Assembly: GCF_004363555.1 (NCBI RefSeq)
Contig: NZ_SNZJ01000022.1
Span: forward strand, 1 to 64,000
DNA: 64,000 nt
Reading direction: 5' to 3'
Source: Halomonas ventosae
Lineage (GTDB): Bacteria > Pseudomonadota > Gammaproteobacteria > Pseudomonadales > Halomonadaceae
Part shown: one piece after another, positions 46,770 to 64,000 of the stretch
How positions within the stretch are numbered: position 1 is the first letter of the stretch
How the letters are laid out: each line of letters starts with the position of its first letter
Notes under the pieces: generated by a model
The model's database searches: none
Told to the model about the DNA's origin: nothing
What the model saw: the letters and a program-made list of their open reading frames with translations, nothing else
Made by a program: the position numbers and the translations under genes

Positions 46770-46998
46770 AACGCGCCTCATACGTCATGGCGGCTGGCAT
46801 GCCGGGCCCGGCCTCGAAGGCGCACAGGGCATTGAGCGGCAGGAAGGGGGGCGTGTCATCCGAGGCCTAGTTAGTTCAGCTAATGAGTGACGCAAGAGAT
46901 CATGGCTTGTTTGAGTGTGACGCCGGCGGCTACGCTTGGCAGCCCATCGCCTCCTGGTCCCGCATATTGGGAGGCCAGCGACCCGAGAGAACCGGCCC

Positions 46999-47805
46999 AT
47001 GAGATACCGTCCCATCCTGCCAGCCCTGATCCTGTTGACCCTCTTGCCACTGCCGGCATTCGCCGGCGACTGGCAGCCACGCCCCGACTGGGCCGACATC
47101 TTCGCCGAGCAGAGGGCCGTCAACGGCACCCTGGTGATCGTCGACGAGCGGGAGGGCCGCGAGGGCCACTGGGTGGTGAACCCCGAGCGCGCCGGCGAGC
47201 GGCTCTCTCCGGCTTCCACCTTCAAGGTGCCCCATGCGCTCTTCGCCCTGGATGCCGGCCTGGTGGAGGATGAGTTCGAGGTGTTCCACTGGGACGGAGT
47301 GGAGCGCGATGTGCCGGCCTGGAACCAGGACCAGACCCTGCGCTCTGCCCTGCGCTTCTCCACCGTCTGGGTCTTCCAGCGCCTCGCCGACGAGCTCGGT
47401 GCCTCGCTCGAGCGGGAGTACCTGAGCGAGACAGGCTACGGCAACGCCGACGTCGGCGGCGATGTTGAGACCTTCTGGCTCGACGGCAGCCTGCGGGTAT
47501 CGGCCTTCGAGCAGGTCGACTTCCTCGAGCGGCTCTACGACATGGCCTTGCCCTTCGCCGAGGCCGACCAGCGGCTGGTCAAGGACATCCTGATCAATGA
47601 GGCCGGACGCGACTGGATCCTGCGCGCCAAGAGCGGCTGGGACGGCCGGGTCGGCTGGTGGGTCGGCTGGGTCGAATTGCCCGCCGGTCCGGTGTTCTTC
47701 GCCCTGAACCTCGACACCCCCGAGCGGCTGGCCGACCTGCCCAAGCGCGAGGCCATCACCCGGGCGGTACTGAGCCGACTGGAGGCGCTGCCGATGGGCG
47801 AGTAA
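46999..47805 (+). CDS. Class D (OXA-type) beta-lactamase
   Basis: A 268-residue exported serine beta-lactamase. Signal peptide over residues 1-22 (LILLTLLPLPAFAG). All class D motifs are present: S73-TFK with the lysine that is carboxylated in this class, S121-TV, Y147-GN, and K211-SG, followed by a Trp-rich stretch. It should hydrolyse penicillins; the spectrum cannot be read from sequence. GC content and codon use match the neighbours and no integron or IS is near, so it looks resident. Upstream, TTGTTT at 46907 and TACGCT at 46931 are 18 bases apart, a weak promoter candidate. Confidence 0.92.
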   Translation: MRYRPILPALILLTLLPLPAFAGDWQPRPDWADIFAEQRAVNGTLVIVDEREGREGHWVVNPERAGERLSPASTFKVPHALFALDAGLVEDEFEVFHWDGVERDVPAWNQDQTLRSALRFSTVWVFQRLADELGASLEREYLSETGYGNADVGGDVETFWLDGSLRVSAFEQVDFLERLYDMALPFAEADQRLVKDILINEAGRDWILRAKSGWDGRVGWWVGWVELPAGPVFFALNLDTPERLADLPKREAITRAVLSRLEALPMGE

Positions 47806-50654: not shown

Positions 50655-52334
50655 TCAGCCTTTGGGACCTCGAGGCTCGCTTATCAGTCCATTGACCATG
50701 CCATAGCACGCCACCAGCAAGACGAAGGTGAAGGGCAGGGCGGTAACGATCACTGCCGCCGCCAGCGCTTTCAGGCCGCCACCCAGCAGCAGGGCGATGG
50801 CGATGGCACCCTGGATGAGGGCCCAGAAGATCCGCTGCGGTTTGGGCGCATCGACCTTGCCGCCGGCCGTGATGGAGTCGATCACCAGCGAGCCGGAGTC
50901 GGAGGACGTGATGAAGAACACGACCACCAGCACGATGCCGATCAAGGAGGTGATCTGGGACAGCGGCAGTCGGCTGAACACCACGAACATCTGCAGTTCG
51001 AGGGCCGAGTCCATGGCGCCCTGGAAGTTGTCGGTGATCACTTGATCGACGGCTGTGCCACCTAAGGTACTCACCCACAGCACCGTGATAGTCGACGGCA
51101 CCAGCAGCACGGCGATCAGGAATTCACGTACGGTGCGACCTCGGCTGACCCGGGCGATGAACATGCTGACAAACGGTGCCCAGGAGACCCACCAGGCCCA
51201 GTAGAAGGTGGTCCAGCCCTGGCTGAAATTGGCATCCTCACGGCCGAAGGGCATGGAGAGCGCAGGCAGGTTGACCAGGTAGGCGACCAGGTTCTCGAAG
51301 AAGCCGGTGACGATCAGCAGGGTCGGGCCCACGGCCATCACGAAGACCACCAGCAGGAAGGCCAACACCATATTGAGCTGGGAGAGTCGCTGCACGCCCT
51401 TATCGACGCCGAGGACGACCGACACCAACGCGATCAGGGAGATGCTGATGATCAGCACCACCATGGTGACGTTAGTGTTGGGGATGCCGAACAGGTAATT
51501 CAAGCCTGCGGCGGCCTGAGTGGCGCCGAGGCCGAGTGACGTGGCCAGGCCGAACAGCGTGGCGAACACCGCCAGGATATCGATGGCGTGGCCTGGCCAG
51601 CCCCAGATGCGCTCCCCAAGGACCGGGTAGAAAACCGAGCGCATGGTCAGCGGCAGGCCCTTGTTGTAGGCGAACAGGGCCAGGGCCAGGGCCACCACGG
51701 CATAGGTCCCCCAGGCATGCAGGCCCCAGTGGAAGATGGTGGTGGATATGCTTAGCGAGGCGGCGGCGGCCGGGTCACCCGCGGCGGCGCCCAGTGGTGC
51801 CCAGTCGGTGCGCACCCCGTTTTCCACGGTGATACCCCCCATGGCGCTGCCGTAGTGGGTCAGTGGCTCGGAGAGCCCATAGAACATCAGGCCGATGCCC
51901 ATGCCCGCGGCGAACAGCATGGAAAACCAGCCGATAAAACTGAATTCCGGCTGGGCATTGGCACCGCCTATCCTGACCCTAGCCATGGGCGTGAAGATCA
52001 GCACGAACGCGAGCACCAGGAAGATGTTGGCCGCCAGCAGGAAGAACGAGGACAGGTTAACGGTCAGGAAGTTGAAGGCGGTATTGAAGACTGGTTCCAC
52101 CTGGTCTTGCAGGGCCAGCGTGATGATCACGAAGAACAGGACCGTCAGTGAGGAGATGGTGAAGACCTTGCCGTGCAGGTCCACTGAGATCCCGAACTTG
52201 GAGGCCGCGAAGTTGTCCTGTCCGATCACGTGATCGGTTTCGATGAGGTTTGCCGGCCCATCCGGTGCCGGGATGCCCCGGGGGCCGGCGTGTTTCGGTT
52301 GCGGGGCGCTCGCTTCGTTGGGATTTATATACAC
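50655..52334 (-). CDS. BCCT-family quaternary ammonium/DMSP transporter
   Basis: A 559-residue carrier with 12 helices and a cytoplasmic N-terminal tail of about 55 residues. The BCCT signatures are AAGMGIGLMFYGLSEP, GLHAWGTYAVVALALA and FYWAWWVSWAPFVSMFIAR. The GMGIG motif is that of Na+-coupled betaine carriers. Substrates are glycine betaine, choline, carnitine or DMSP. The start is a GTG with GGGA eight bases upstream. Position beside the folate and DmdA-like genes suggests uptake of the methylated compound they break down. It is the last gene on this strand. Confidence 0.93.
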   Translation of the reverse strand: MYINPNEASAPQPKHAGPRGIPAPDGPANLIETDHVIGQDNFAASKFGISVDLHGKVFTISSLTVLFFVIITLALQDQVEPVFNTAFNFLTVNLSSFFLLAANIFLVLAFVLIFTPMARVRIGGANAQPEFSFIGWFSMLFAAGMGIGLMFYGLSEPLTHYGSAMGGITVENGVRTDWAPLGAAAGDPAAAASLSISTTIFHWGLHAWGTYAVVALALALFAYNKGLPLTMRSVFYPVLGERIWGWPGHAIDILAVFATLFGLATSLGLGATQAAAGLNYLFGIPNTNVTMVVLIISISLIALVSVVLGVDKGVQRLSQLNMVLAFLLVVFVMAVGPTLLIVTGFFENLVAYLVNLPALSMPFGREDANFSQGWTTFYWAWWVSWAPFVSMFIARVSRGRTVREFLIAVLLVPSTITVLWVSTLGGTAVDQVITDNFQGAMDSALELQMFVVFSRLPLSQITSLIGIVLVVVFFITSSDSGSLVIDSITAGGKVDAPKPQRIFWALIQGAIAIALLLGGGLKALAAAVIVTALPFTFVLLVACYGMVNGLISEPRGPKG

Positions 52335-52382
52335 TTTTTATTTCCCTTTCAGTTTGTCGGTAGTTGAGGGTGCGTGCAGTAG

Positions 52383-52580
52383 TTAGCACCGAGGCCTGAC
52401 CAGAAAGGTCGAGGCCTGGGTGTGGGTCGCCACCTTATGCCCGTGAGAAGGCATCACGAGATTCGCGTGAGTAGGTGGATGGGTTGGCATGGCGACTGGA
52501 TCGGCGCCCACGTCCCCGATCGTCTTGATCAGCGTGTTATCGTGGCCCGGGACAAGGGTGGGCTCGTCGTTGTAGTTCAT
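52383..52580 (-). CDS. Small unknown protein between folD and the BCCT gene
   Basis: A possible 65-residue protein rich in His, Thr and Pro (HPPTHANLVMPSHGHKVATH), with no signal peptide or membrane helix. It has one of the best ribosome sites of the region, GAGGAG five to seven bases before the ATG. It lies in the operon gap between folD and the transporter gene. The many His residues could bind metal. No family was recognised, so it could still be a chance frame. Confidence 0.45.
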   Translation of the reverse strand: MNYNDEPTLVPGHDNTLIKTIGDVGADPVAMPTHPPTHANLVMPSHGHKVATHTQASTFLVRPRC

Positions 52581-52661
52581 GCGTGCTCCTCAGGTTGTTA
52601 TTATTGCGTCGCCTGGGGCGACGCGGGACATTCTGGGTGCGAGTGGCGGAAGATCTAACGA

Positions 52662-53525
52662 TCAGGCCAACTGATACCTTGCTGCTCGTGTCGTATTCAA
52701 CAGCAGGCAGGCGATCGTCATCGGACCCACGCCACCGGGTACCGGCGTGATTGCGCCAGCGACCTGGGCAACCGATTCGAAATCCACGTCACCCACGAGC
52801 TTTCGCTTGCCATCGACATCAATGGCGTTGATGCCGACATCGATGACCGTTGCACCCGGCTTGATCCAGTCAGCGTTGATGAACTCCGCCCGGCCGACCG
52901 CCGCTACCACGATATCGGCATTGCGGCACAGCGTTTCGATGTTCCTCGTTCGTGAATGGGCAATGGTGACCGTACAGTTTGCCTGCAGGAGCAGTGCAGC
53001 CATCGGCTTTCCCACGATATTGGAGCGCCCCACCACCACGACATTCTTGCCACTAAGGTCCGGGTGGACCTGGCGCAGCATGATCATGCAGCCTTGTGGC
53101 GTGCACGGCACAAGTGATGGACGCCCGGAAGCGAGTGCCCCGACGTTCAGTGGGTGAAAGCCATCAACATCCTTGGCCGGATGGATGGACGCTATCACCA
53201 CATCCTCGTCGAGATGTGACGGTAGTGGCAGTTGCACCAGAATGCCGTGCACCTCAGGATCATTGTTCAGTTGATCGATCAGCTCATTCAGGGTGTTCTG
53301 GGAGGTTTCGGCATCGAGCCGGTGCTCGATAGAACCCATTCCCGCCTCTGTCGCCCGCTTCACCTTGTTTCTCACATACACCTGGCTAGCGGGATCCTCC
53401 CCCACAAGCACGACAGCCAGTGTCGGCACCATGTCATGTTCGCCCTTGAGTAGCGCGACTTCTGAGGCGACTTCCAGCAAGACCTGATCCGAGAGCTGTT
53501 TTCCGTCTATTAAATGAGTCATCAT
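52662..53525 (-). CDS. folD: Methylenetetrahydrofolate dehydrogenase/cyclohydrolase FolD
   Basis: A 287-residue bifunctional enzyme: 5,10-methylene-THF to methenyl-THF (NADP+) and on to 10-formyl-THF. Motifs are [14 protein letters not shown] with catalytic Tyr and Lys, [29 protein letters not shown] and [12 protein letters not shown]. Codon use and GC are lower than in most of the window, so this is probably an extra, acquired copy. It follows purU by 11 bases, and the two make a carbon-oxidation pair. Confidence 0.95.
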
Positions 53526-53536
53526 GCCCCCTGCTT

Positions 53537-54412
53537 CTATTTGAAAATGACGGTCTTGTTGCCCGAAAGGAACACACGGCTCTCGGTATGCAGCTTGACG
53601 GCGCTTGCCAGTGCCTTCGTTTCGGTATCGCGGCCAAGCGCAACGAGTTCTTCCGGGTAGTAGGCATGATTGACGGGGAGCACGGACTGCTCGATGATCG
53701 GACCTTCATCCAGGTCTGCGGTCACGTAGTGCGCCGTGGCACCGATCAGCTTGACGCCACGCTCGAATGCCTGGTGATAGGGCTTGGCACCCTTGAAGCC
53801 GGGCAGGAAGGAGTGGTGGATATTGATGGCCCGTCCATGCAGCTGCTTGCATAGGCTATCGGACAGGACCTGCATGTAACGCGCCAGTACCACCAGCTCG
53901 GTTCCTGTCGCGTTGATGATATTGAGTAGCTCGGCTTCCTGTTCCAGTTTGTTTTCTGCCGTCACTGGCAGGTGAACAAAGCGAAAGCCTTCACGCTCGA
54001 CCAGCGGTTGAAGATCCAGGTGGTTGGATACGACCGCGGTGATATCGATGTTCAATTCGCCCTTGTGATAACGGTAAAGAAGGTCGACCAGGCAGTGGTC
54101 AAACTTGGATACCATGATCATGACCTTGGTCGGGTGGCTGACCTCATGCATCGCCCAGGCTATGCCATGCTTGTCTGCCAGGGCATTGAATCCAGTGCGG
54201 ATGTCCTCGAAGGTGTAGCGGGAGTCCGGGGTGATGTTGAATAGCGTCCGTAAGAAGAACTGACCGCTGATCTTGTCATCGAATTGGGATAGTTCTGCGA
54301 TATAGCCGCCGCGCTCTGTGATATAGGATGCGATTCCGGCAACGATTCCAGGCGCAGTCCTGCAGCTGACAGTGAGGATGTATTGGTTGGAGTAGTCCGT
54401 GACGTGTCTCAT
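53537..54412 (-). CDS. purU: Formyltetrahydrofolate deformylase PurU
   Basis: A 291-residue enzyme that splits 10-formyl-THF to formate and THF. The N-terminal ACT domain (about 8-85; [16 protein letters not shown]) precedes a formyltransferase fold with the catalytic Asn-His in [17 protein letters not shown] and the Asp in [21 protein letters not shown] lies eight bases before the ATG. In this operon it would release carbon coming from methyl-THF as formate and recycle THF. Confidence 0.95.
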
Positions 54413-54555
54413 GGCAGAAAACCTTTATATATTGATGTTTGTTGGTTGATTCGCTGACAGCAACTTGATGTCTTTGAAGTTCTTTATTCAGGCATCAGGA
54501 TGGATTGCCTGTCGGGTTGTTCATTGTTGCGATCAAGGGTCATGTCATTAAAAGC

Positions 54556-55032
54556 TCACTTCAAAGCCTTGTTAGGGTCTTCTGCCAGGTTCGACGCGTT
54601 ACGTGCGATACGCAGCCAGGACGAGCTTCCCTTCTGACGATGATCAACTGGCAGTTGCACCACCTGGATCTTGTCACCACCTTTCATCTTCTGACTTCCA
54701 TCCCAGGCTTCGACCCAGACACATCGCATCTCCGGATTGACCTCACAGTTGCCGTTGGCGCGTACCCCGCCACAAGGACCGTTGCGCAAGGACTTAGGGC
54801 AGTTCATGGGGCAGGACATTCCGGTAGAGCTGAGGATGCACTGACCACACATCTTGCAGTCGAACAGTAATCCCTTGCTGATCTTTTCCAGCTTGCTCAC
54901 CGGCTTTTCTGCGCGTTGGTAGCCTACCGAGTTCCAGAGCGGCTGCAACTTGACGACTACCGGTTCGAATATCCGGTATACGCGCTCGAAGAATCTTGCG
55001 TGCCGCACGGCCCAAAGGCGAATGGGATACAT
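54556..55032 (-). CDS. MetV-like protein (MTHFR C-terminal domain)
   Basis: A 158-residue cysteine-rich protein of the MTHFR_C type (PF12225-like). A basic helix (RHARFFERVYRIFEPVVVKL) precedes CKMCGQC, CPMNC, NGPCGG and two later Cys: a pattern for an Fe-S cluster and possibly zinc. In acetogens the related MetV is partner of MetF, the methylenetetrahydrofolate reductase. No metF catalytic gene is adjacent here. Strong AGGAG six bases before the ATG. A close paralog begins at 63838. Confidence 0.82.
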   Translation of the reverse strand: MYPIRLWAVRHARFFERVYRIFEPVVVKLQPLWNSVGYQRAEKPVSKLEKISKGLLFDCKMCGQCILSSTGMSCPMNCPKSLRNGPCGGVRANGNCEVNPEMRCVWVEAWDGSQKMKGGDKIQVVQLPVDHRQKGSSSWLRIARNASNLAEDPNKALK

Positions 55033-55235
55033 GTGTCTCTCCTTTCACGGCAACGCCACTGTGGAACTGATCATGGATCCCTGGATCCGTGAGACGCCTG
55101 CTTGATCCTTTATAACCAACAAGAAGCTTCTCGCCTTGCCAGGTAAATACTTTCCTGGCGAAGAGGTTGGTATTACAAGGTTTCATGGCACTCACGGATG
55201 CAGGGGGTTTTCAAGTCAACCGCTAGACCGGCTTT

Positions 55236-56405
55236 TCAAGCGGATGTGGCGATCTTCTTCTTGGGGTCGAAGAAGGGCTTTTCGACCACAACAGCCTTCA
55301 CGGGGCCGGAGGCGGTTGGAATTTCCAGTTTAGTGCCGGGTGCTGCATGTTCAGCGGCTACCATGGCCAGCGCAATGTTCTGCTCAAGGCGCGGGGAGTA
55401 GACCGCAGAGGTCACCTTTCCGACGGTCTCGCCATCCTTGCTGAGTGGCCAGTACCTGGTGTTGGGTCTCTTGAGGGGCGCCATATCGATACGCAGCCCG
55501 ACCTGCTTGCGACTCACGCCATTCTTACGGATGCGCTGCAACGCGGCCTTGCCGATAAACTCTGCCTCCATGTCCGGGTTCACCAGACGGTCCATCCCGA
55601 GTTCGTAGGGATTGGTGTTGCTGTCCGCGTCAGCGTGATAGGAGAGCATCCCACCTTCGATGCGGCGAATCGTGGAGGTATGACCAGGCTTCAACCCGAA
55701 GGGCGCACCTGCGGCCATGATCTTTTCCCAGAGTTCGTCACCTCGCGTACCGTCACGCAGGTAAAGTTCATAGCCCAGCTCGCTCGACCAGCCCGTGCGC
55801 GAGACAATCAGCGGGATGCCATCAAGCTCGATCTCGCGCAACCAGTAGTAGCGCAGGTCCATGATGCTCTCGCCGAAGAGACTCTTCATCACCTCTCCCG
55901 AGTTCGGGCCCTGGAGTTGCAGCGGCGAAACGTCGGGTTCGCGGATGCTGACATCGAGCCCGGCATGAATCGCAACACCTTGCGCCCACAGGAGGATGTC
56001 GCTGTCAGCCAGAGAGATCCAGAAGTGATTCTCTGCGAGCCGTAGCAGGATCGGGTCGTTAAGGATGCCACCGTCCGCATTGGTGATGAGGATATACTTG
56101 CACTGACCAACGGCCATTTCCGAGAGATCACGCGGGGTCAGGCTCTGCACGAATTTCGCCGCATCCGGACCGGTGATTTCCACCTGCCGCTCGCTGGCAA
56201 CGTCACAAAGGATGGCCTCATTCACGAGGTTCCAGAAATTCTGTTCCGGATCCCCGAAGTCACGCGGGATATACATGTGGTTGTATACTGAAAAACCCTT
56301 TGCCCCCCAGCGGACTGTTGCGTCAAAGTAGGGAGACTTCCGGATCTGTGTTCCGAACCCGAAGTCATCGGCTTTTTCTATGTTGGCTGACGTAAGATTT
56401 GTCAT
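55236..56405 (-). CDS. GcvT/DmdA-family THF-dependent demethylase
   Basis: A 389-residue folate-binding protein, close in pattern to DMSP demethylase DmdA: DVASERQVEITGPDAAKFVQ, FWISLADSDILLW, SPLQLQGPNSGEV, RIEGGMLSYHADAD, and SNTNPYELGMDRLV. DmdA moves a methyl group from DMSP to THF, giving methylmercaptopropionate. The related aryl O-demethylases LigM/DesA are longer (about 470). GcvT itself is less likely because the glycine cleavage partners are absent. GC is lower than in the housekeeping part. AGGAAAGG precedes the ATG at 56405 by eight bases. It opens the demethylase-MetV-purU-folD operon; the substrate is unproven. Confidence 0.78.
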   Translation of the reverse strand: MTNLTSANIEKADDFGFGTQIRKSPYFDATVRWGAKGFSVYNHMYIPRDFGDPEQNFWNLVNEAILCDVASERQVEITGPDAAKFVQSLTPRDLSEMAVGQCKYILITNADGGILNDPILLRLAENHFWISLADSDILLWAQGVAIHAGLDVSIREPDVSPLQLQGPNSGEVMKSLFGESIMDLRYYWLREIELDGIPLIVSRTGWSSELGYELYLRDGTRGDELWEKIMAAGAPFGLKPGHTSTIRRIEGGMLSYHADADSNTNPYELGMDRLVNPDMEAEFIGKAALQRIRKNGVSRKQVGLRIDMAPLKRPNTRYWPLSKDGETVGKVTSAVYSPRLEQNIALAMVAAEHAAPGTKLEIPTASGPVKAVVVEKPFFDPKKKIATSA

Positions 56406-56931
56406 TGTAGTTACCTTTCCTGATATAAAGTTCAAGGGGCAGCGCGAACTGGCTGATTTGGCACAGCTCAATATAGGCTCACATGGCGGTGTGAAGCGGC
56501 CTAAAATCACTGTGAATTGGATCCGAACAGACCAGTTTTTTACGTAGCGCAGTCCATTTGGTCCGGCTTGCCCGTGCAGGGCCTTGTCGTCGCTGGGCGT
56601 GGGCTTTACCCCTGCCCCTGCTGGTGATCCGTCGTTGGCTCATGGCGAAGTCAACGCAGGGGGGAGTCTGATACCGTTGGGGTTGGGGCAACTGGCAGTA
56701 GGGCCCTGCTTCACCTCTGTGGTAGGGCCGAGGTGGAACGACGCTGACGCTCCCGCCTCTACCGGCTGCGCCGGGGGGAGGCGGTTATTCCATGAATCGA
56801 GGATGTGGGGGATGCATGGTGATCAAGGGAAAGCGTGATATCGAGCATCAACGCGGGGCCATCCCGCGCCAAGGTGAGCGTCTGGCACCGGCTTGGGCCG
56901 GAATCGTCGTTGCCTGTCGCGTGGAGGCACC
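56406..56931. other. Divergent control region between the DmdA-like and MFS genes
   Basis: About 525 bases with promoters expected for both sides. The direct repeat GTAGGGCC occurs twice near 56700-56730, the second followed by an inverted CACCT/AGGTG pair. Possible short frames, such as 56584-56838, lack ribosome sites and family likeness. I see no riboswitch-like structure I can name. Confidence 0.35.
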
Positions 56932-58212
56932 ATGAAGACGCTATCGAGCACAGGGTTTGCGATCTTTGGCGCAGCGCTAGTCGCGATCAGTTACGGGCTC
57001 GCGCGCTTCGCTTTCGGGCTTTTCGTGCCCCCTATCCGGGACGAACTGGGACTCACGCCGTACGTGATCGGCATCATCGGCGCGCTGCCGCTAATCAGTT
57101 TCCTGTTGGCCACGGCGATCGCCCCGTTAATCACCGCTTATCTCGGGGCCCGCAACACGGCGATGCTCTCCGGGACGTTCGGCGTCGGTGGCCTGGCGCT
57201 GATCAGCCAGGCCAGCGACGCGCTGATGCTGGGCATGGGGGTGTTCGCATGCGGCATCTGCACGGGCCTGATGATGCCGGCGCTCACGGCCGCCATGCAG
57301 GCGATGGTTAAGCGCTCGATGCACGGGCGCGTCAGCTCGGTCATGAACGCGGGGACCAGCATCGGCGTGATCGTGGCCGTACCGACGGTGCTGTTCCTGG
57401 CCGGCGCCTGGCGGCTGGCGTACCTCTCCTTCGCCATCCTGGCAGGCATCGGCGTCGTTGCCGCCTGGCTCTTCCTGCCCTCGGTGTCGCGGATCACGCC
57501 GGGGAACGCCGCGCCACCGCCACCGCTCAGCGAACTGCCCTGGTCACGCCTTGTCAGGCTCTCGCTGTTTGCCTTCCTGATGGGCTTCATCTCCTCCGCG
57601 TACTGGATCTTCGCGCCTGACCTGGTGGTCACCCTCGGCGGCCTGCCGCCCGGCGCCACCGGATGGCTCTGGCTCTCGGTGGGCATCGCCGGCCTCGGCG
57701 GGGCAGTGGTGGCCGACCTGGCCGATCGCAACAACCCACCCATCACGCAGGCCCTGATGCTGATGATGCTGGCCGCGAGCCTGGCGCTGCTTGCCGCCAG
57801 CCCCAGTCAGTCATGGCTGGCGGCCTTCTCTGCACTGGTCTTCGGCCTGGCCTACATGAGCCTGACGGGGCTCTACCTCATGACCGGTATCCGCCTGTTG
57901 CCGGGCCGGCTGTCGGTGGGGCCGGTACTGCCCTTCATGGCGGTATCGCTGGGTCAGGCGTCCGGCTCGCCTGTCGTTGGTGGGCTGGTGGATATCTTCG
58001 GCTACGCCGATGCCTTTGCCATGTTCGCCGCGCTCGGCATCCTGGTGGCGATCCTGTCGCCCTTCTACCCGGGCCACATCGCCCAGGCCGAGGAGGACGA
58101 GGAAGAGGACTCAGGCCTCCAGGCGGCCTACGATCACCAGCTCCAGAACGATGAGGGCGAGCCGCTGGAGCCCGCCGAGGAGGAAGCTGAGAAGCCCGCC
58201 GTCAACCCATGA
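56932..58212 (+). CDS. MFS transporter (YbfB/CynX-like)
   Basis: A 426-residue major facilitator with 12 helices (starts with FAIFGAALVAISYGLARFAFG), then a very acidic tail of about 40 residues rich in Glu. The loop between helices 2 and 3 is short (APLITAYLGARN). Members transport organic anions or drugs; the substrate is unknown. GGAGG lies four bases before the ATG. It is divergent from the DmdA-like gene and convergent with the Lrp gene, so it may export or import a pathway intermediate. Confidence 0.85.
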   Translation: MKTLSSTGFAIFGAALVAISYGLARFAFGLFVPPIRDELGLTPYVIGIIGALPLISFLLATAIAPLITAYLGARNTAMLSGTFGVGGLALISQASDALMLGMGVFACGICTGLMMPALTAAMQAMVKRSMHGRVSSVMNAGTSIGVIVAVPTVLFLAGAWRLAYLSFAILAGIGVVAAWLFLPSVSRITPGNAAPPPPLSELPWSRLVRLSLFAFLMGFISSAYWIFAPDLVVTLGGLPPGATGWLWLSVGIAGLGGAVVADLADRNNPPITQALMLMMLAASLALLAASPSQSWLAAFSALVFGLAYMSLTGLYLMTGIRLLPGRLSVGPVLPFMAVSLGQASGSPVVGGLVDIFGYADAFAMFAALGILVAILSPFYPGHIAQAEEDEEEDSGLQAAYDHQLQNDEGEPLEPAEEEAEKPAVNP

Positions 58213-58272
58213 CGGCGGTCCTGGGATTGGGCCGGTGCCCAGGCACGAATGAGCCGGTGACCGCTACCCGGC

Positions 58273-58764
58273 TCAGTTTCCAGATTCGGCCATCAAGCAG
58301 GCAAGTTTGGGGTGAGCCGATTTGATGTCTCGGGTGGCGATGTAGGTCATGTAGCGTTCGATCCCCAACTCCTCTGAAAGAAGCTTATCCATTACCTGCT
58401 GAAAGGCGGAAAGGCTGGGGGCGACGACTTTCAAGACGTAGTCCATGCCGCCACCCGTCGCTATGCATTCGACGATCTCGTCCACCTGGCGGATATAGGC
58501 CTCGAAGCGCTCGAAAGCCGATTTTTGATGCCCCTTCAGTGAAACGGTCACGATGACTTTCGAGACATCCACGATCTTTTCCAGCGAGATGTCCGCATGA
58601 TACCCACGTATCAGGCCAGCTTCCTTCAATCGGTTGAAACGAATCCAGCACGGCGTCGGGGAAAGATTGACCAGCTCTGACAGTCTGGCCTTGCTGAGCT
58701 GCCCGTGCTGCTGCACGGCGGACAGGATGCGCATGTCGGCAGCATCAAGAGTCACTTTCCTCAT
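58273..58764 (-). CDS. Lrp/AsnC-family regulator
   Basis: A 163-residue regulator. The N-terminal HTH is at about 8-55 (LDAADMRILSAVQQHG, SKARLSELVNLSPTPCWIRF), and the RAM ligand domain at about 70-145. Lrp-type regulators respond to amino acids or related small acids and act on nearby catabolic genes, so it may control the accessory cluster. The ATG at 58764 has GAGG ten bases upstream; a GTG at 58770 is an alternative. It faces the MFS gene. Confidence 0.92.
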   Translation of the reverse strand: MRKVTLDAADMRILSAVQQHGQLSKARLSELVNLSPTPCWIRFNRLKEAGLIRGYHADISLEKIVDVSKVIVTVSLKGHQKSAFERFEAYIRQVDEIVECIATGGGMDYVLKVVAPSLSAFQQVMDKLLSEELGIERYMTYIATRDIKSAHPKLACLMAESGN

Positions 58765-58930
58765 GTGCACTCAGCCTCTGTTTGATTGCCGCAGGCGGGG
58801 CCGTCGTCGTTGCATATGGATCTGGCCTGAGTTCACAGTCTAGATCGTATCGATGACATTGACCCCGTTACGGTAGACACATGGACTGATCGAGATGCTG
58901 CGTATTCCACGCCACCATGAAGGAGTCGGG

Positions 58931-60355
58931 TCAATGGCTCATGCTTTCGGCGACGTAGCGCCTGCACTTGTCCCGAGCGTTGATCAAGACGTCGCGCAAC
59001 AGCTCTTCGGCGCTGGGATGGTAGACCGGCATCGCCAGGACCTGCTCTGCCGTCATGCCGTGCGTGATGGCCAGGGCTAGCAGGTGCGCCAGGTGTTCCG
59101 CCTTGTACCCAAGCAGCTCGGCGCCCAGTATCACACCGGTTTTCGCGTCCAGGTAGACCTGGATGCGCCCTTCGACCTTGTTCCAGACCACATGGCGAGG
59201 ACTGGTAAACGGCAGGTCGCCAATGACGATCTCCTGACCCTCGAGTTGTCGGAAGCTCTGGCCGATCGTGGCGATCTGCGGATCGGTGAAGGCCACCATC
59301 AGCGGCGGTCTACGCTGTGCAGGCACCGGGTTCGGGTAGTTCAAGGCATTATCGGCGGCAATACGCCCTTCATCGAAGGCCTCGTGCCACAGCGGCAGGT
59401 GGTCGGTCACATCGCCGGCGATAAAGATAGGAAGGTCCGAGCAGCGCATCGTCTGCGGGTCGAATGTCACCGCGCCCGCCTCGCTGACTTCCACGCCCGT
59501 ATGCTCCATACCCAACCGGTCCACGTTGGGGATCCTCCCCGTGGCCACCAGTACCCTGTCGAACACCCTGGTGACCCGCTCTCCGTTTGGTTGCTCAAAC
59601 TCGATCCAGGCGCCTTCGGCGTCTTCCCGGGTGCTCACCACCTGGCCGACGGGGTAGATATCCAGCTCGGTGCTGAAGAGGTCGAGCGCTTGCTGCTGCA
59701 GGTCCGGATGAGTGAGGGCGTTGATCCTTCCGGAGCGGCCGTAGATGGTCGTCTCGACGCCCAGCCGATGGAGTGCCTGCCCCAGTTCCAGGGCAATCAC
59801 GCCCGTACCGATCACGGCGATCGAGCGGGGCAGGTCCTCCAGCTCGAAGACCGTGTCGCTGGTGAGCACGCGAGCCATGACGGGCTCGAACACCTCGCTG
59901 ACCGCCGGCCTGGAGCCACAGGCGAGGATGAACTTCTTCGCAGTGACCTCGACCGAGTCACCCACCCTGAGGCGGCCCGGCCCGATAAACCGGGCGCGCC
60001 CCTCAAGCTTGTAATGGGCCGGAATCTTGTCGACGTAGCGGAGGTTGTTGGCGACGAAGCGATTATCTCGCTCCCGGCGCAACCGTTCGAAGACCTTGCG
60101 GCCATCCACGCGACCCGTCGCCGTCACCCCGAAAAACTCGCTGGAGTTCAAGTGGTGCGCGTAATCGGCAGCGGTGATCATCAGCTTGCTGGGCATGCAG
60201 CCGACTCGTGCACAGGTGGTGCCGTAGGGGCCGTCCTGGATCATCACCAGGCTGTCGGTCTTGCGGCTGATCCTCGAGTAGGCGCCCAGCCCGGCGGTGC
60301 CGGCGCCGATGATGGCGTATTCAACATTCATGGTCTTCATGGCAGGTTCGCTCAT
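58931..60355 (-). CDS. Dihydrolipoyl dehydrogenase-like FAD disulfide reductase
   Basis: A 474-residue pyridine-nucleotide disulfide oxidoreductase. FAD motif AIIGAGTAGLGA, redox pair in TTCARVGCMPSK, NAD(P) motif AVIGTGVIALELG, and C-terminal dimer domain with the His-Glu active pair in MPVYHPSAEE. The family includes Lpd and glutathione-type reductases; as no E2/E3 partners are adjacent, the substrate is open. The ATG at 60355 has GAGG six bases upstream; the long alternatives start with TTG. It is divergent from osmC across a region with palindromes. Confidence 0.88.
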   Translation of the reverse strand: MSEPAMKTMNVEYAIIGAGTAGLGAYSRISRKTDSLVMIQDGPYGTTCARVGCMPSKLMITAADYAHHLNSSEFFGVTATGRVDGRKVFERLRRERDNRFVANNLRYVDKIPAHYKLEGRARFIGPGRLRVGDSVEVTAKKFILACGSRPAVSEVFEPVMARVLTSDTVFELEDLPRSIAVIGTGVIALELGQALHRLGVETTIYGRSGRINALTHPDLQQQALDLFSTELDIYPVGQVVSTREDAEGAWIEFEQPNGERVTRVFDRVLVATGRIPNVDRLGMEHTGVEVSEAGAVTFDPQTMRCSDLPIFIAGDVTDHLPLWHEAFDEGRIAADNALNYPNPVPAQRRPPLMVAFTDPQIATIGQSFRQLEGQEIVIGDLPFTSPRHVVWNKVEGRIQVYLDAKTGVILGAELLGYKAEHLAHLLALAITHGMTAEQVLAMPVYHPSAEELLRDVLINARDKCRRYVAESMSH

Positions 60356-60522
60356 CTGGCGCCTCATCGTAGCGGGTGTCTTGTTGTTCAAGGCGTGACG
60401 TGGTGGTTTAGGGGGGCGAGATCGACTTCAGCCCTGGCTGAATGAGCCCCGGCTGAATGATCCATGACAGGGGCAGGCTATCCGCGGCCTTTCGGGCGGT
60501 AAAGCGAGAGATTCTCAGTGTT

Positions 60523-60543
60523 TGGGTTATTTTTGCTAACCCA
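60523..60543. promoter_or_regulatory. Palindrome TGGGTTA-N7-TAACCCA
   Basis: A perfect seven-base inverted repeat around TTTTTGC in the 374-base divergent region between the Lpd-like gene and osmC. The shape suits a dimeric regulator such as LysR or Lrp. It could also be a weak terminator by its T-run, but no gene ends here. Nothing else is recognised in 60356-60729 apart from the next two entries. Confidence 0.5.
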
Positions 60544-60631
60544 TGGGTGACGGAGCGTCGGGCCGAGGCCGCCCTTGGTGGGGGATGGTGTTATGCCTGG
60601 ATCCTTCCTCCGGAGGCTGCCAGGCCTCACG

Positions 60632-60644
60632 TTAGCCAGGCTAA
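60632..60644. promoter_or_regulatory. Palindrome TTAGCC-A-GGCTAA upstream of osmC
   Basis: A perfect odd palindrome 86 bases before the osmC start. A related element, TTAGTTCAGCTAAT, lies at 46871-46884 upstream of the class D beta-lactamase gene. It is a candidate operator; the regulator is unknown. Confidence 0.4.
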
Positions 60645-60695
60645 TCCAACTGCTTAGGAATCGTCGCTTTCCGGGCGTTTCCTGGATCGCATAGG

Positions 60696-60715
60696 ATTCG
60701 CAGAGATTCGCAGAG
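60696..60715. repeat. Tandem 10-base repeat at the osmC ribosome site
   Basis: ATTCGCAGAG occurs twice head to tail, directly followed by AAGGA, the ribosome-binding site of osmC. Copy-number changes would alter leader length. Confidence 0.55.
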
Positions 60716-60729
60716 AAGGAAGCCTATCC

Positions 60730-61179
60730 ATGTCAGTCCACCAGTCCGCCATCCGTTGGCAGCGCAGCCCTCACGAAGCCGATGCCAACACCTATTCGCG
60801 CAACCACCAGGTTTCGCTGAATGGTGGCCAGCAGGTCAATGTTTCCGCGTCGGCTGAATTCAAGGGCGATTCAAGCTGCGCCGACCCGGAACAGATGCTG
60901 GTCAGCGCGGTGTCCAGCTGTCATATGCTGTTCTTTCTGGCGATCGCCGAGTTCCAGGGGTATCAGGTCGAATCCTATCACGACGATCCCGTCGGCCATC
61001 TGGAGCGCAACGACAAGAAAGGGATGGAGGTGACGCGTATTGTGCTGTCACCGCGCATCGCCTTCGGCGGCGATAACATACCGAATCAGGACGCGATATC
61101 CAGGATCCACGCCGGCGCCCATCGTAACTGTTTCATCCGTAATTCGATCACCGCCGAGGTGTCGATCAACCATAGCTAG
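60730..61179 (+). CDS. OsmC-family thiol peroxidase-like protein
   Basis: A 149-residue OsmC/Ohr-like protein. The two reactive cysteines appear in GDSSCADPEQML and AVSSCHMLFFLAIAE. OsmC proteins reduce organic hydroperoxides and respond to osmotic stress. The arrangement upstream of the crotonase and ligase genes suggests it may protect against or act on thiols or thioesters of the pathway, by inference. Start supported by AAGGA. It has a moderate GC content compared with the left part of the window. Confidence 0.88.
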   Translation: MSVHQSAIRWQRSPHEADANTYSRNHQVSLNGGQQVNVSASAEFKGDSSCADPEQMLVSAVSSCHMLFFLAIAEFQGYQVESYHDDPVGHLERNDKKGMEVTRIVLSPRIAFGGDNIPNQDAISRIHAGAHRNCFIRNSITAEVSINHS

Positions 61180-61205
61180 TCAGCCATTCCTGGCGGGAGT
61201 CAAAT

Positions 61206-62006
61206 ATGCATAACAGCCAAACTTCGGAAAGTATCCTGCTCAGAGAGGATAGGGACGGGGCTGTCACCCTCACGTTGAATCGGCCGGACAAGTTCAACAC
61301 CCTTTCCGAGGCGATGCTGGCCGAGTTGCAGCGGGAGCTGGACGCGATTGCCGCCGACCCTGCCGTTCGCTGTGTGGTGATCGGTGCCAGGGGACGGGGC
61401 TTTTGCGCCGGTCACGACCTGCGGGAGATGCGTGCCAATCCTGATCACTCCTATTATCAGGCGCTGTTCCGTCGCTGCAGCCGAGTGATGCAGAGTATCG
61501 TCGCGCTGCCGGTGCCGGTCATCGCCAACGTTCAGGGCATGGCCACGGCAGCGGGGTGCCAGCTGGTGGCCAGCTGTGACCTGGCCATCGCCGCCCGATC
61601 GGCCAGCTTCGCGGTATCGGGCATCAACGTTGGCCTGTTCTGCTCGACCCCCGCCGTGGCGCTGTCACGCAACATCCCCCCCAAGCGGGCGTTCGACATG
61701 CTGGTATCAGGCCACTTCATCGATGCGGAGACGGCACTGGAGTGGGGGCTGTTGAGTGGCGTCGCCGACGATGCCGATCTGGACGCGGCCGTTGACGACA
61801 AGGTGGCACAGATCCTGGGCAAGAGCCCTGCGGCGGTGCGTTTCGGAAAGTCCATGTTCCACCACCAGCGTCAGATGGCCCTGGAGGATGCCTACGACTT
61901 TGCCGGTGATGTGATGGCCGAGAACATGCTGAGCCCTGACGCCGGCGAGGGGATCGATGCCTTTCTCGCCAAGCGTAAACCCGTCTGGGAGCAGCCAGGC
62001 CGCTAG
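61206..62006 (+). CDS. ECHDC3-like enoyl-CoA hydratase/isomerase family protein
   Basis: A 266-residue crotonase. The CoA and oxyanion regions are clear (GRGFCAGHDLREM, NVQGMATAAGCQLVAS), but the two catalytic glutamates of hydratases are not where expected: the first reads Gln in AAGCQLVAS and the second region reads GINVGLFCSTP. This pattern is that of ECHDC3-type proteins, ending with AFLAKRKPVW. Its reaction is therefore uncertain. GGGAG precedes the ATG by seven bases; it lies 26 bases after osmC. Confidence 0.85.
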   Translation: MHNSQTSESILLREDRDGAVTLTLNRPDKFNTLSEAMLAELQRELDAIAADPAVRCVVIGARGRGFCAGHDLREMRANPDHSYYQALFRRCSRVMQSIVALPVPVIANVQGMATAAGCQLVASCDLAIAARSASFAVSGINVGLFCSTPAVALSRNIPPKRAFDMLVSGHFIDAETALEWGLLSGVADDADLDAAVDDKVAQILGKSPAAVRFGKSMFHHQRQMALEDAYDFAGDVMAENMLSPDAGEGIDAFLAKRKPVWEQPGR

Positions 62007-62118
62007 CGCCGCTGCATGACAGAAAACCCTGATGCCGATCAGGCCGCGGATTCGAGAGTGGCATGGCCGGTGAAACGCCGAGTCTTGAACCCTCCCTTAC
62101 AATAACAGGGGTTACACC

Positions 62119-63759
62119 ATGAGTGATGTCTGCCAGTTCAATGATGCTCTCGAGAAAACGGCGGCAAATCATGTACCGCTTTCACCCTTGAGCTTCATCA
62201 AGCGGGCGGCTGCCGTTTATCCTGACAGGACGGCGCTGATCTACAACGAGACACGTTACAGCTGGCAGCAGACCTACGACCGCTGTTGTCGACTGGCCTC
62301 CCTGTTGAAACAGTTCGGCATCGACAGGGGCGATACGGTGGCCGTCATGTTGCCGAATGTCCCGGCCATGTACGAGGCCCACTTCGGGGTTCCCATGGTG
62401 GGCGCGGTGTTGAATGCGATCAACATTCGCCTGGACCCGGAGGCGGTGGCCTTCATCCTCGAACATAGCCGCTCGCGCCTGCTGCTGGTGGACCCCGAGT
62501 ACGTGGACGTGGTCGAGAAGGCCCTGGCCCGCCTGGAAGGGCCGGCGCCCAGGGTGATCAACGTCTCCGACCCGAGCCAGGGCGAAGAGCGCCTGATCGG
62601 CGACCTGGAGTACGAGGCGCTGCTGGCTGAGCAGCCGGCGCGGGAGGACTGGCAGCTGCCGGTCGACGAGTGGGATGCGATCGCGCTGGGGTACACCTCC
62701 GGCACCACTGGCAACCCCAAGGGGGTCGTCACCCACCATCGGGGCGCCTATCTGAATGCGGTCAGCAACGTGCTCTCCTGGACCTTGCCGTCCCGCGTGG
62801 TCTACCTCTGGACCCTGCCGATGTTTCACTGCAACGGCTGGTGCTTCCCGTGGACGCTGGCGGCGATCGGCGGGACCAGCGTCTGCCTTCGCCGGGTCGA
62901 CCCGCAGGAGATCCTGCGCCTGATCAGGCAGCATCGCGTCAGCCACTACTGCGGTGCGCCCATCGTCCACTCGATGATCGCCGATGCTGCCGGTGCCGAG
63001 CAGGCAGCGATCGACCACAAGGTGTCGGGGCTGATCGCCGGTGCGGCGCCGCCGGCGTCGGTGCTGGAGCGCATGGAGAAGCTCGGTGTCGAGCTCACCC
63101 ACGTCTACGGGCTCACCGAGACCTATGGCCCCGCCTCGGTGTGCACCAAGCAGGATGGCTGGGACCAGCGCCCCCTGGAGGAGCGGGTTCGGCTCAATGG
63201 ACGCCAGGGGGTCACCTATCCCCTGCAGGAGGGCATCGCGGTACTCGACCCGGCCACGCTGGAGCCCGTTCCCGCCGACGGCGAGACGGTGGGCGAGATC
63301 ATGTTCCGGGGCAATATCGTCATGAAGGGGTATCTGCGTAACGAGGCCGCGACCAGCGAAGCCTTTGCCGGCGGCTGGTTTCACTCCGGTGACCTGGGTG
63401 TGGTGGAATCGGATGGCTACATCAAGATTCGCGACCGACTGAAGGACGTGATCATCTCGGGCGGGGAAAACATCTCCTCGATGGAGGTGGAGGAGATCCT
63501 CCAGCGGCATGAAGAGGTCGAACTCGCGGCGGTCGTGGCGATGGCGGATGCCAAGTGGGGCGAAGTCCCCGCGGCCTTCGTCCAGTTGCGCCCGGGCAGC
63601 GAGCTGAGCGAAGACGCGCTGATCAGCTTCTGCAGGGAGAACATCAGCCGCTTCAAGGCGCCCAAGAAGGTGATCTTTGGCCCCTTGCCGACCACCCCCA
63701 CGGGGAAGATCCAGAAGTTCCAGTTGCGCAAGCAGCTCGAGACCGGCCCGTCAGCCTGA
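62119..63759 (+). CDS. Acyl-CoA ligase (AMP-forming), DmdB-like candidate
   Basis: A 546-residue ANL-superfamily ligase: P-loop YTSGTTGNPKGVV, A5 HVYGLTETYGP, A7 HSGDLGVVESDGYIKIRDR, and the A10 lysine in PTGKIQKFQL. It turns an acid, ATP and CoA to an acyl-CoA. Short- or medium-chain fatty acids fit the family; methylmercaptopropionate ligase DmdB belongs to the same clade of about 540-residue enzymes. Its location behind the crotonase and within the DmdA-like cluster makes this worth testing. It starts 112 bases after the crotonase gene. Confidence 0.88.
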   Translation: MSDVCQFNDALEKTAANHVPLSPLSFIKRAAAVYPDRTALIYNETRYSWQQTYDRCCRLASLLKQFGIDRGDTVAVMLPNVPAMYEAHFGVPMVGAVLNAINIRLDPEAVAFILEHSRSRLLLVDPEYVDVVEKALARLEGPAPRVINVSDPSQGEERLIGDLEYEALLAEQPAREDWQLPVDEWDAIALGYTSGTTGNPKGVVTHHRGAYLNAVSNVLSWTLPSRVVYLWTLPMFHCNGWCFPWTLAAIGGTSVCLRRVDPQEILRLIRQHRVSHYCGAPIVHSMIADAAGAEQAAIDHKVSGLIAGAAPPASVLERMEKLGVELTHVYGLTETYGPASVCTKQDGWDQRPLEERVRLNGRQGVTYPLQEGIAVLDPATLEPVPADGETVGEIMFRGNIVMKGYLRNEAATSEAFAGGWFHSGDLGVVESDGYIKIRDRLKDVIISGGENISSMEVEEILQRHEEVELAAVVAMADAKWGEVPAAFVQLRPGSELSEDALISFCRENISRFKAPKKVIFGPLPTTPTGKIQKFQLRKQLETGPSA

Positions 63760-63837
63760 ACTGGGCGAGGATGAGGCGTTGACGCAGCATCGCTGGCGGA
63801 GTGGGGGCAGTGCCTCCGGCGAAAGAAGGAACATATC

Positions 63838-64000
63838 ATGTACAGGGTGCGTCGCTGGGTGGTTCGCCATGCCAGAGTCTTCGAGATGATCTACCGGCGT
63901 TTCGAGCCGGTGCTGGTCAAGCTCGCCCCCGTGTGGCGGCGACTGGGTCACGAGCGTGTCGAGGCGCCGGTGAGGAGGGTGGAAAAGGCCGCCAAGGGGG
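63838..64000 (+). CDS. MetV-like protein, 5' part (cut by window edge)
   Basis: The first 54 codons of a paralog of the protein encoded at 54556-55032. Both share RHAR-F, Y-R-FEPV-VKL-P-W and the pattern E-PV-E-K. The Cys-rich part would lie beyond the edge. AAGGA lies eight bases before the ATG. Codon use is more GC-rich than in the first copy, so the two are not a recent duplication. A MetF partner may follow outside the window. Confidence 0.8.
   Translation, partial: MYRVRRWVVRHARVFEMIYRRFEPVLVKLAPVWRRLGHERVEAPVRRVEKAAKG

What the first reader, a model, noticed from the sequence alone, without database searches (positions are those of the whole stretch)
50655..64000. Putative methyl-to-formate catabolic island around a DmdA-like demethylase
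Seen: BCCT carrier, small His-rich protein, folD, purU, MetV-like and GcvT/DmdA-like genes in one direction; OsmC, ECHDC3-like crotonase, acyl-CoA ligase and a second MetV-like gene in the other; Lrp regulator between. Known: DmdA moves a methyl from DMSP to THF; MetF/MetV, FolD and PurU can carry methyl-THF to formate. Inferred: uptake, demethylation and carbon oxidation of a methylated osmolyte, with the remaining acid activated by the ligase. The absence of dmdC and of a classic dmdD would make this an unusual pathway.
Basis: partly seen in the sequence, partly recalled or inferred. Interest (0 to 1): 0.8.

Follow-up and report, generated by a model that had tools for sequence, protein, structure and literature searches.

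The report
Mobile sulfonium-type methyl-stripping gene cluster
A salt-loving bacterium carries a portable set of genes that probably strips a methyl group from a DMSP-like sulfur compound, burns it to formate and frees methanethiol by a route different from the textbook one; neither the compound nor the route has been tested in the laboratory.

Summary
The genes are there. The 389-residue protein is a DmdA-superfamily, THF-type methyltransferase, not GcvT or LigM, but it lies outside the DmdA clade and below the curated DmdA score (375.9 against 410 bits). I call it DmdAL. True DmdA coexists with it in 7 of 9 alphaproteobacterial genomes and 0 of 5 halomonads.

DmdAL sits in a conserved operon, Lrp-DmdAL-OsmC-crotonase-acyl-CoA ligase; the last three all occur in 51 of 80 loci. 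The five genes also lie on Phaeobacter and Loktanella plasmids.

The substrate clue comes from relatives: an SBP56 (methanethiol-oxidase family) gene lies within 5 kb of 7 of 31 DmdAL genes, against 2 of 118 other superfamily genes, both true DmdA. In two loci it follows the ligase.

Best reading: demethylation of a dimethylsulfonium-type zwitterion, methyl oxidation to formate, and methanethiol release without a DmdC in the operon. The substrate is unproven. The "His-rich protein" is a recombination scar.

The parts
50655..52334 (-). BCCT carrier with Gly motif GMGIG and FYWAWW box; closest solved relative is a trimethylamine transporter, then other BCCT chains (choline, BetP), DddT far behind
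   Evidence: Pfam BCCT 561.6 bits; PDB search 8zw8 414.8, 8ybq 336.3, choline carrier 307.4, BetP 304.5, DddT 170.9 bits; motifs printed
52383..52580 (-). 65-aa 'His-rich' ORF: scar joining the start of another BCCT-type gene to the end of a universal-stress-type gene (type read by eye)
   Evidence: matches to BCCT starts and to the 138-aa ORF of L050; L026 and L050 ORFs and alignment; no Pfam or NCBIfam match
52662..53525 (-). FolD, methylene-THF dehydrogenase/cyclohydrolase
53537..54412 (-). PurU, formyl-THF deformylase
   Evidence: TIGR00655 313.8 against cut-off 285.95
54556..55032 (-). MetV-like protein 1 (PF12225)
   Evidence: 70% identical to MetV2 over 145 aa
55236..56405 (-). DmdAL, DmdA-superfamily THF methyltransferase (predicted demethylase)
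56932..58212 (+). MFS transporter, role unclear; in 2 of 80 loci at the threshold used
58273..58770 (-). Lrp-family regulator, conserved partner of DmdAL
   Evidence: in 66 of 80 loci
58931..60391 (-). dihydrolipoyl-dehydrogenase-like flavoprotein; in 9 of 16 halomonad-type loci (15 labelled halomonad, one Aquisalimonas) and 0 of the 64 others at the threshold used
60730..61179 (+). OsmC-family protein with two conserved Cys (SSCHM, CFI)
   Evidence: Pfam OsmC; conservation; 59 of 80 loci
61206..62006 (+). ECHDC3-type crotonase: Gly at the place of one catalytic Glu, acidic residue kept at the other (positions recalled)
   Evidence: NF006008 416.5 bits; residues; closest solved 3myb and human ECHDC3
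62119..63759 (+). acyl-CoA ligase of the PRK08162 family, not DmdB by the curated model
   Evidence: NF006020 902.2 against 677; DmdB model NF005426 304.4 against 822
63838..64000 (+). MetV-like protein 2, cut by the window end; MetF follows on the contig

Best explanation
The island encodes uptake and demethylation of a small dimethylsulfonium-type zwitterion (DMSP or a relative such as DMSA, gonyol or DMSOP). BCCT imports it. DmdAL moves one methyl group to THF. MetV/MetF, FolD and PurU oxidise methyl-THF to formate, and a formate dehydrogenase elsewhere in the genome finishes the oxidation. The remaining S-methyl acid is made into a CoA thioester by the ligase. The ECHDC3-type crotonase, which keeps one acidic residue but has Gly at the other catalytic place, releases the S-methyl group as methanethiol by elimination, so no DmdC step is needed in the operon. 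Methanethiol and sulfide are then handled by SBP56-type methanethiol oxidase, rhodanese, persulfide dioxygenase or sulfide oxidation genes, which lie near DmdAL in some relatives. OsmC (with the flavoprotein in halomonads) handles peroxide or thiol by-products. Lrp controls the operon. Shown here: gene content, clade, conserved operon, association with sulfur genes, mobility. Inferred from families: THF methyl transfer and methyl oxidation. Inferred only: substrate, elimination step, OsmC role, Lrp control.
For: Enzyme type: best solved relative by sequence is P. ubique DmdA, 265.4 bits; best structural match of the model (pLDDT 84.7) is DmdA, TM 0.90/0.95, rmsd 1.7 A. Asn116 is shared by 29 of 29 DmdAL, 8 of 8 DmdA and 8 of 8 paralogue rows, where 11 of 13 GcvT/Tdm rows have Asp. 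Methyl oxidation: FolD, PurU, MetV and MetF; formate dehydrogenase genes beside MetV in L020-L023 and an 87% identical copy in this genome. Operon: OsmC+crotonase+ligase in 51 of 80 loci, Lrp in 66 of 80; same five genes on plasmids. Sulfur: SBP56 within 5 kb of 7 of 31 DmdAL genes against 2 of 118 other superfamily genes, Fisher p 0.0002, and those 2 are true DmdA, which is known to lead to methanethiol; 23 of 30 DmdAL genomes hold SBP56 against 45 of the other 168, p 3e-7; SBP56 directly after the ligase in L185 and L187; rhodanese, CoA-binding, Fer2 and SBP56 near DmdAL in L148, L183, L184, L186, L087. One of the two catalytic Glu positions of the crotonase is Gly in 56 of 56 rows, the other Glu or Asp in 56 of 56.
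Against: 24 of 31 DmdAL genes in the tested family have no SBP56 within 10 kb, and the window matched none. 2 of 8 halomonad genomes examined hold SBP56, one of them this one, as 138-aa open frames at contig ends. The two SBP56 proteins tested are below NCBI's methanethiol-oxidase cut-off of 650 bits (154.7 and 115.1). Relatedness was not removed from the Fisher tests. The crotonase residue pattern is a family trait shared with M. smegmatis 3myb and human ECHDC3, not special to this operon. 19 of 80 loci show none of OsmC, crotonase or ligase (some are short contigs), and L188, one of the 7 SBP56-linked loci, matched Lrp and DmdAL but none of those three. No acuI match in the fetched DmdAL loci; it matched beside true DmdA only. 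A 59% identical plasmid homologue (Lichenihabitans) sits with MetF, PurU, FolD, an aminotransferase and amino-acid ABC transporter genes and no annotated sulfur-oxidation gene. L063, L048 and L071 carry a dimethylglycine-dehydrogenase-like gene (27-29% to my query) on the same stretch, 2.7-8.2 kb from Lrp. Two PF12806 genes exist elsewhere in the genome.
Confidence: 0.48

Rival explanations
1. Ordinary DMSP demethylation by a diverged DmdA isoform: DMSP to MMPA here, then MMPA-CoA, dehydrogenation by a DmdC-type enzyme encoded elsewhere and hydration by another crotonase. The ligase and crotonase of the operon are generic helpers.
For: Closest characterised family is DmdA. Two PF12806 genes (the DmdC domain, recalled) in the genome. 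SBP56 also lies beside true DmdA in L189 and L190.
Against: Separate clade, below the DmdA cut-off, many fixed differences from DmdA; coexists with true DmdA in 7 of 9 alphaproteobacterial genomes; ligase below the DmdB cut-off. A DmdA-like protein of SAR92 strain H455 did not restore methanethiol (PMC10746254, passages read), so likeness alone is not proof.
Confidence: 0.2
2. Demethylation of an N-methyl zwitterion such as glycine betaine or an N-methyl amino acid, with methyl-THF oxidation; sulfur genes are neighbours by accident or only in some lineages.
For: BCCT is closest to a trimethylamine carrier, with choline and betaine carriers next; Lrp-type regulator; the 59% homologue sits with amino-acid transport and aminotransferase genes; a dimethylglycine-dehydrogenase-like gene lies on the same stretch in L063, L048 and L071; the GcvT fold serves N-methyl substrates too.
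Against: Sulfur-gene association; acid-CoA ligase and crotonase have no place in betaine demethylation to dimethylglycine (recalled pathway).
Confidence: 0.2
3. Second demethylation: DmdAL takes MMPA (from DMSP) to 3-mercaptopropionate; the crotonase then eliminates H2S from its CoA ester. Fits coexistence with true DmdA. The double demethylation is recalled from older physiology; I know no gene for it.
For: Coexistence with DmdA; sulfide-type genes near some loci; no dehydrogenase needed.
Against: 0 of 5 halomonad genomes with DmdAL have a match over the DmdA cut-off; SBP56 points to methanethiol rather than H2S; BCCT carries onium zwitterions (recalled).
Confidence: 0.07
4. Glycine-cleavage T protein or aryl O-demethylase.
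For: Shared fold; GcvT model 186.6 bits.
Against: GcvT cut-off 300, LigM 55.7 against 580, DesA 76.5 against 800; the GcvT-like and Tdm rows form their own side of the tree (no LigM or DesA row was in it); Asn instead of Asp at the GcvT position.
Confidence: 0.02

Closest known systems
DmdA, DMSP demethylase (PDB 3tfh; NF009133)
   Same: Fold (TM 0.90/0.95), two Pfam domains, Asn at the GcvT Asp position, site Glu and Tyr, neighbouring SBP56 genes in some loci
   Different: Own clade, 34-42% identity, 375.9 bits against cut-off 410, no acuI match nearby, Lrp-OsmC-crotonase-ligase operon instead
DMSP demethylation pathway DmdABCD/AcuH, e.g. the SAR92 dmdA-acuH-dmdB-dmdC cluster (PMC10746254, passages)
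   Same: Demethylase plus crotonase plus acid-CoA ligase
   Different: No DmdC in the operon, ligase not DmdB by model, crotonase ECHDC3-type with Gly at one catalytic position, OsmC added
Chloromethane (cmu) pathway of Methylobacterium extorquens CM4 (PMC3621897, passages)
   Same: Methyl-THF oxidation with dedicated MetF2, FolD and PurU on mobile DNA
   Different: Corrinoid CmuA/CmuB methyltransferases instead of a DmdA-like enzyme; substrate is a gas
LigM/DesA aryl O-demethylases and TMAO demethylase Tdm
   Same: GcvT-type THF-dependent demethylation
   Different: Far below their curated cut-offs; Tdm falls outside the DmdA+DmdAL clade

Membership tests
DmdA (DMSP demethylase) | NCBIfam equivalog score of at least 410 bits | tested here: not met
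   375.9 bits; DmdAL copies in 14 genomes 361-382 bits, true DmdA in 7 of them 578-702
DmdA (DMSP demethylase) | falls in the clade of proven DmdA (P. ubique) | tested here: not met
   DmdA 8 rows 100/100, DmdAL 29 rows 95/82, separate
DmdA (DMSP demethylase) | DmdA fold | tested here: met
   model against 3tfh TM 0.90/0.95, rmsd 1.7 A
DmdA (DMSP demethylase) | site residues Glu204, Tyr206 and the Trp called key for DMSP (PMC7487153, passages; mapped here to window Glu213, Tyr215, Trp206) | tested here: inconclusive
   all three kept in 29 of 29 DmdAL rows, but the Trp is Tyr in 6 of the 8 DmdA rows and the Glu is in all 13 GcvT/Tdm rows too
DmdA (DMSP demethylase) | THF-dependent DMSP demethylation | not testable with these tools
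   needs enzyme assay
DmdA superfamily (DmdA + DmdAL + halomonad paralogue) | common clade apart from GcvT and Tdm | tested here: met
   45 rows 100/100
GcvT | curated score and Asp at the position of Asn116 | tested here: not met
   186.6 against 300 and 155 against 235.85; Asn116, Asp in 11 of 13 GcvT/Tdm rows
LigM/DesA | curated score | tested here: not met
   55.7 against 580, 76.5 against 800
DmdB (MMPA-CoA ligase) | NF005426 score of at least 822 bits | tested here: not met
   304.4; solved DmdB (6ihk, identity recalled) ranks fourth
DmdD/AcuH-type hydratase | two catalytic Glu (PMC5395565, passages; positions recalled) | tested here: not met
   Gly at one position in 56 of 56 rows
Methanethiol oxidase MtoX (neighbour in relatives) | NF052453 score of at least 650 bits | tested here: not met
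   154.7 and 115.1 for the two proteins tested; Pfam SBP56 cut-off met

The most novel reading that the evidence does not exclude
A mobile, DmdC-free methanethiol-releasing pathway for a sulfonium or sulfoxonium zwitterion other than DMSP (DMSOP, DMSA or gonyol), with its own demethylase family, ligase and thiol-eliminating crotonase. With DMSOP the elimination product would be a methyl sulfenic acid, which would give OsmC and the flavoprotein a reducing job.
Probability: 0.25. Interest if true: 0.85.

Novelty: new variant of a known kind. Interest (0 to 1): 0.62.

Why it matters
Methanethiol from sulfonium osmolytes feeds marine sulfur budgets, and surveys count dmdA as its marker. A separate demethylase family that travels on plasmids and coexists with DmdA could be scored wrongly, either as dmdA or as gcvT (plasmid records call it 'glycine cleavage T C-terminal barrel'). 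Open questions it touches: methanethiol release from DMSA, which DmdA is said not to take (PMC7221440, passages); whether DMSOP is demethylated (named as a priority in PMC10686828, passages); and gammaproteobacteria that demethylate or cleave DMSP without known genes (PMC9327192, passages).

Tried and rejected
GcvT and aryl O-demethylase identities: rejected by score, tree (GcvT and Tdm only) and residues.

His-rich protein as a pathway part: rejected as a scar.

DMSA as the proven substrate: R. pomeroyi releases methanethiol from DMSA (PMC7221440, passages), so I asked whether it has DmdAL. Genome G368, taken as R. pomeroyi because it holds a 100% match to a 235-aa stretch of PDB 3l3s (its source organism is recalled) and is 4.6 Mb, has no DmdAL: best hits 42% and 40%. 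So that phenotype is not explained by DmdAL; DMSA is neither supported nor excluded.

Acryloyl-CoA link through acuI: no acuI match in the DmdAL loci.

A shared non-operon neighbour in the first 80 loci: clusters of ORFs gave mostly unrelated transporters; the useful leads were SBP56 and the sulfide-type genes. A gene-picking rule based on codon GC was used to read neighbours; it misses or extends some genes, and part of the output was cut and not seen, so presence counts rest on tblastn instead.

The Trp criterion of PMC7487153: not diagnostic, since 6 of 8 true DmdA rows have Tyr.

Literature: eight searches of an open-licence library. In the listings and in the passages that I opened I saw no account of this operon; I read no paper whole. 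One paper held dimethylsulfoniopropionate, DmdA and OsmC together, and its passages describe a different SAR11 locus. Subscription papers and preprints were not searched.


Full report
WHAT IS THERE. The window is bases 1-64000 of contig C22 (73,604 bases) of a 4.02-Mb genome. Its closest named matches are halomonads: Billgrantia montanilacus, Halomonas rhizosphaerae and H. gemina, each 96% in the 389-residue protein. One search lists the ORFs and name them. Minus strand: BCCT, FolD, PurU, MetV-like, a two-domain GCV_T/GCV_T_C protein of 389 residues, Lrp and a dihydrolipoyl-dehydrogenase-like flavoprotein. Plus strand: an MFS carrier, OsmC, an ECHDC3-type crotonase, a PRK08162-family acyl-CoA ligase and a second MetV-like gene. 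The second MetV crosses the window end and is followed by a MetF (Pfam MTHFR 106.4 bits; its best NCBI model, PRK08645, is below cut-off) and a LysR gene. A formate dehydrogenase 87% identical to the one next to MetV/MetF in Halomonas denitrificans (L022) lies elsewhere in the genome. That FDH gene also lies in L020, L021 and L023, next to a MetV gene.

A CORRECTION. The small His-rich ORF is not a gene of the pathway. Its first codons resemble the starts of other BCCT genes in related loci, and the rest matches the end of a 138-aa ORF that precedes BCCT in Sedimentimonas (L050) and Ruegeria marina (L038). I read that ORF as a universal-stress-type protein by eye; no family search was run on it. 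In Halomonas gemina (L026) a longer form of the scar is visible: a BCCT start, then the stress-type remnant, then the new BCCT. The likely history is that a resident BCCT gene, about 50% identical and still beside FolD in L016, L017, L018, L020, L022 and L027, was replaced by a stress-gene-plus-BCCT pair of the type seen in L038 and L050 (61-62% identical). This is inference.

WHAT THE 389-RESIDUE PROTEIN IS. By sequence the best solved relative is P. ubique DmdA (265.4 bits) ahead of GcvT (156 bits). An AlphaFold model (mean pLDDT 84.7) matches DmdA best: TM 0.90/0.95, rmsd 1.7 A; GcvT follows closely (TM 0.86/0.92), so the fold alone does not decide. A tree of 58 rows places 29 DmdAL rows (95/82), 8 DmdA rows (100/100) and 8 rows of a halomonad paralogue (100/98) together at 100/100, apart from the GcvT-like rows and Tdm. 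The join of DmdAL with DmdA rather than the paralogue is weak (83/49), and long branches meet in this tree. DmdAL keeps the DmdA-type Asn where 11 of 13 GcvT/Tdm rows have Asp, and the Tyr of the site. It is below the DmdA equivalog cut-off (375.9 against 410; GcvT 186.6 against 300; LigM 55.7 against 580). In 14 genomes with DmdAL, 7 also hold a DmdA over the cut-off; all 7 are among the 9 alphaproteobacteria, and none of the 5 halomonads has one. So it works like a DmdA-type methyltransferase but is not a member of the DmdA clade.

THE OPERON. One search returned the 80 best of 552 related loci (78-96% identical). With tblastn, counts over these 80 loci, anywhere in the fetched stretch and at fixed identity thresholds, are: Lrp 66, OsmC 59, crotonase 58, ligase 54, all of the last three 51, FolD and PurU 18, MetV 19, MetF 12, BCCT of this type 4. 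Several loci are short contigs, so these are lower bounds. In alphaproteobacteria the usual order is Lrp-DmdAL-OsmC-crotonase-ligase; in halomonads the OsmC-crotonase-ligase set often faces the other way. In a second sample (30 loci with 1.5-kb flanks) Lrp is beside 20 of 30 and OsmC beside 13 of 30; 10 of 30 show no Lrp, and 9 of 30 none of the partners. The same five genes lie on plasmids of P. inhibens P51, P30 and P88 and of Loktanella salsilacus, near integrases, insertion sequences or transfer genes and in different surroundings. The conserved block therefore looks like a portable unit. One search found 12 plasmid records in all, 6 of them with 79-82% identity; I opened five of the 12.

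THE SULFUR LINK. In the first 80 loci SBP56 (Pfam PF05694, the methanethiol-oxidase family) lies in L022, L076 and L087. A NifU-like, SQR-like, DUF1641-like set (names by eye, except Pyr_redox_2 by Pfam) lies between the flavoprotein and Lrp in L018 and L025. To test this I searched one family of 198 genomes with a diverged DmdAL and with PF05694. Of 31 DmdAL-type hits (identity to the query 59% or more), 7 have SBP56 within 5 kb, and 7 within 10 kb. Of the 118 other superfamily hits 2 do. Both are true DmdA: L190 by tblastn, beside acuI, and L189, 62-83% identical to the seven true DmdA rows of my set taken from genomes. Fisher p is 0.0002. Even placement of genes would give about 0.1 DmdAL cases. 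23 of 30 DmdAL genomes hold SBP56 against 45 of 168 others, p 3e-7. These tests ignore relatedness. I read eight loci, six of them with DmdAL. In L185 and L187 SBP56 and its permease follow the ligase in one run, Lrp-DmdAL-OsmC-crotonase-ligase-SBP56. In L183, L184, L186, L148 and L087 a rhodanese, a CoA-binding protein and a Fer2 protein accompany SBP56. In L188 SBP56 and Lrp flank DmdAL, but OsmC, crotonase and ligase gave no match there. The window genome holds SBP56 only as two 138-residue open frames at contig ends, and 6 of 8 halomonad genomes examined have none. The two SBP56 proteins tested fall below NCBI's methanethiol-oxidase cut-off, so 'methanethiol oxidase' is a family-level guess.

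HOW IT MAY WORK. Import by BCCT; methyl transfer to THF by DmdAL; oxidation of methyl-THF by MetV/MetF, FolD and PurU to formate, as in the chloromethane pathway (PMC3621897, passages), then CO2. The BCCT is nearest a trimethylamine transporter, with choline and BetP-type carriers next and DddT far behind, and has the Gly motif of carboxylate-betaine carriers (meaning recalled). The ligase is not DmdB by the curated model. The crotonase has Gly at one catalytic position in 56 of 56 rows and Glu or Asp at the other in 56 of 56 (which Glu does what is recalled). An enzyme with only the base could remove a thiolate from a beta-thio acyl-CoA without a hydration step, which would explain why the operon has no dehydrogenase. 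But this residue pattern is shared with the wider ECHDC3 family, so it permits the idea and does not prove it. PMC9769926 (passages) states that MtoX makes H2O2, which offers OsmC a role. All of this paragraph after gene naming is inference.

WHAT DOES NOT FIT. 24 of 31 DmdAL genes tested, and the window, have no SBP56 nearby. A 59% homologue on a Lichenihabitans plasmid is with amino-acid transport genes. Three loci carry a dimethylglycine-dehydrogenase-like gene on the same stretch. The one strain that I know from the papers opened to turn DMSA into methanethiol appears to lack DmdAL. PF12806 genes exist in this genome. DMSP as substrate is therefore open, and so is the elimination step.

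VERDICT. The new points are the separate clade, the mobile operon, the sulfur-gene association, the MetF outside the window, and the scar. I rate it a new variant of a known kind.

Noticed in passing
G000:C8:141063-142193 (L011:11063-12193): A DmdA-like paralogue 52% identical to DmdAL, beside an 855-aa FAD-GcvT fusion and a formate-THF ligase-like gene (by eye); a third DmdA-superfamily group seen in other halomonads.
   Followed up: partly
window 46936-47805 (+): A 289-aa ORF that looks like a class D (OXA-type) beta-lactamase by its STFK, YGN and KSG motifs (recalled); not searched.
   Followed up: no
G000:C4:256433-256834 and G000:C9:3-404 (L149 end, L150 start): Two similar-scoring C-terminal pieces of an SBP56 gene at contig ends, suggesting a repeat that broke the assembly.
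   Followed up: partly
G368:C1:1753260-1754342: In the genome taken as Ruegeria pomeroyi, a further DmdA-like gene (42% to DmdAL, 345.8 bits) besides the presumed DmdA; a candidate for other demethylations.
   Followed up: no
L208 (Lichenihabitans psoromatis plasmid): A 59% identical DmdAL relative with MetF, PurU, FolD, aminotransferase and amino-acid ABC transporter genes: possibly a related pathway for an N-methyl compound.
   Followed up: partly
window 54556-55032 and 63838-64000: Two MetV-like genes 70% identical flank the block, one without its own MetF; in other halomonads a MetV-MetF pair lies between DmdAL and PurU (L019, L024, L025, L030, L032).
   Followed up: partly
L152:10523-13135: Beside a second DmdAL-OsmC copy in Sulfitobacter sediminilitoris, a gamma-glutamyltransferase-like gene (by eye) and a persulfide-dioxygenase-like gene.
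   Followed up: no
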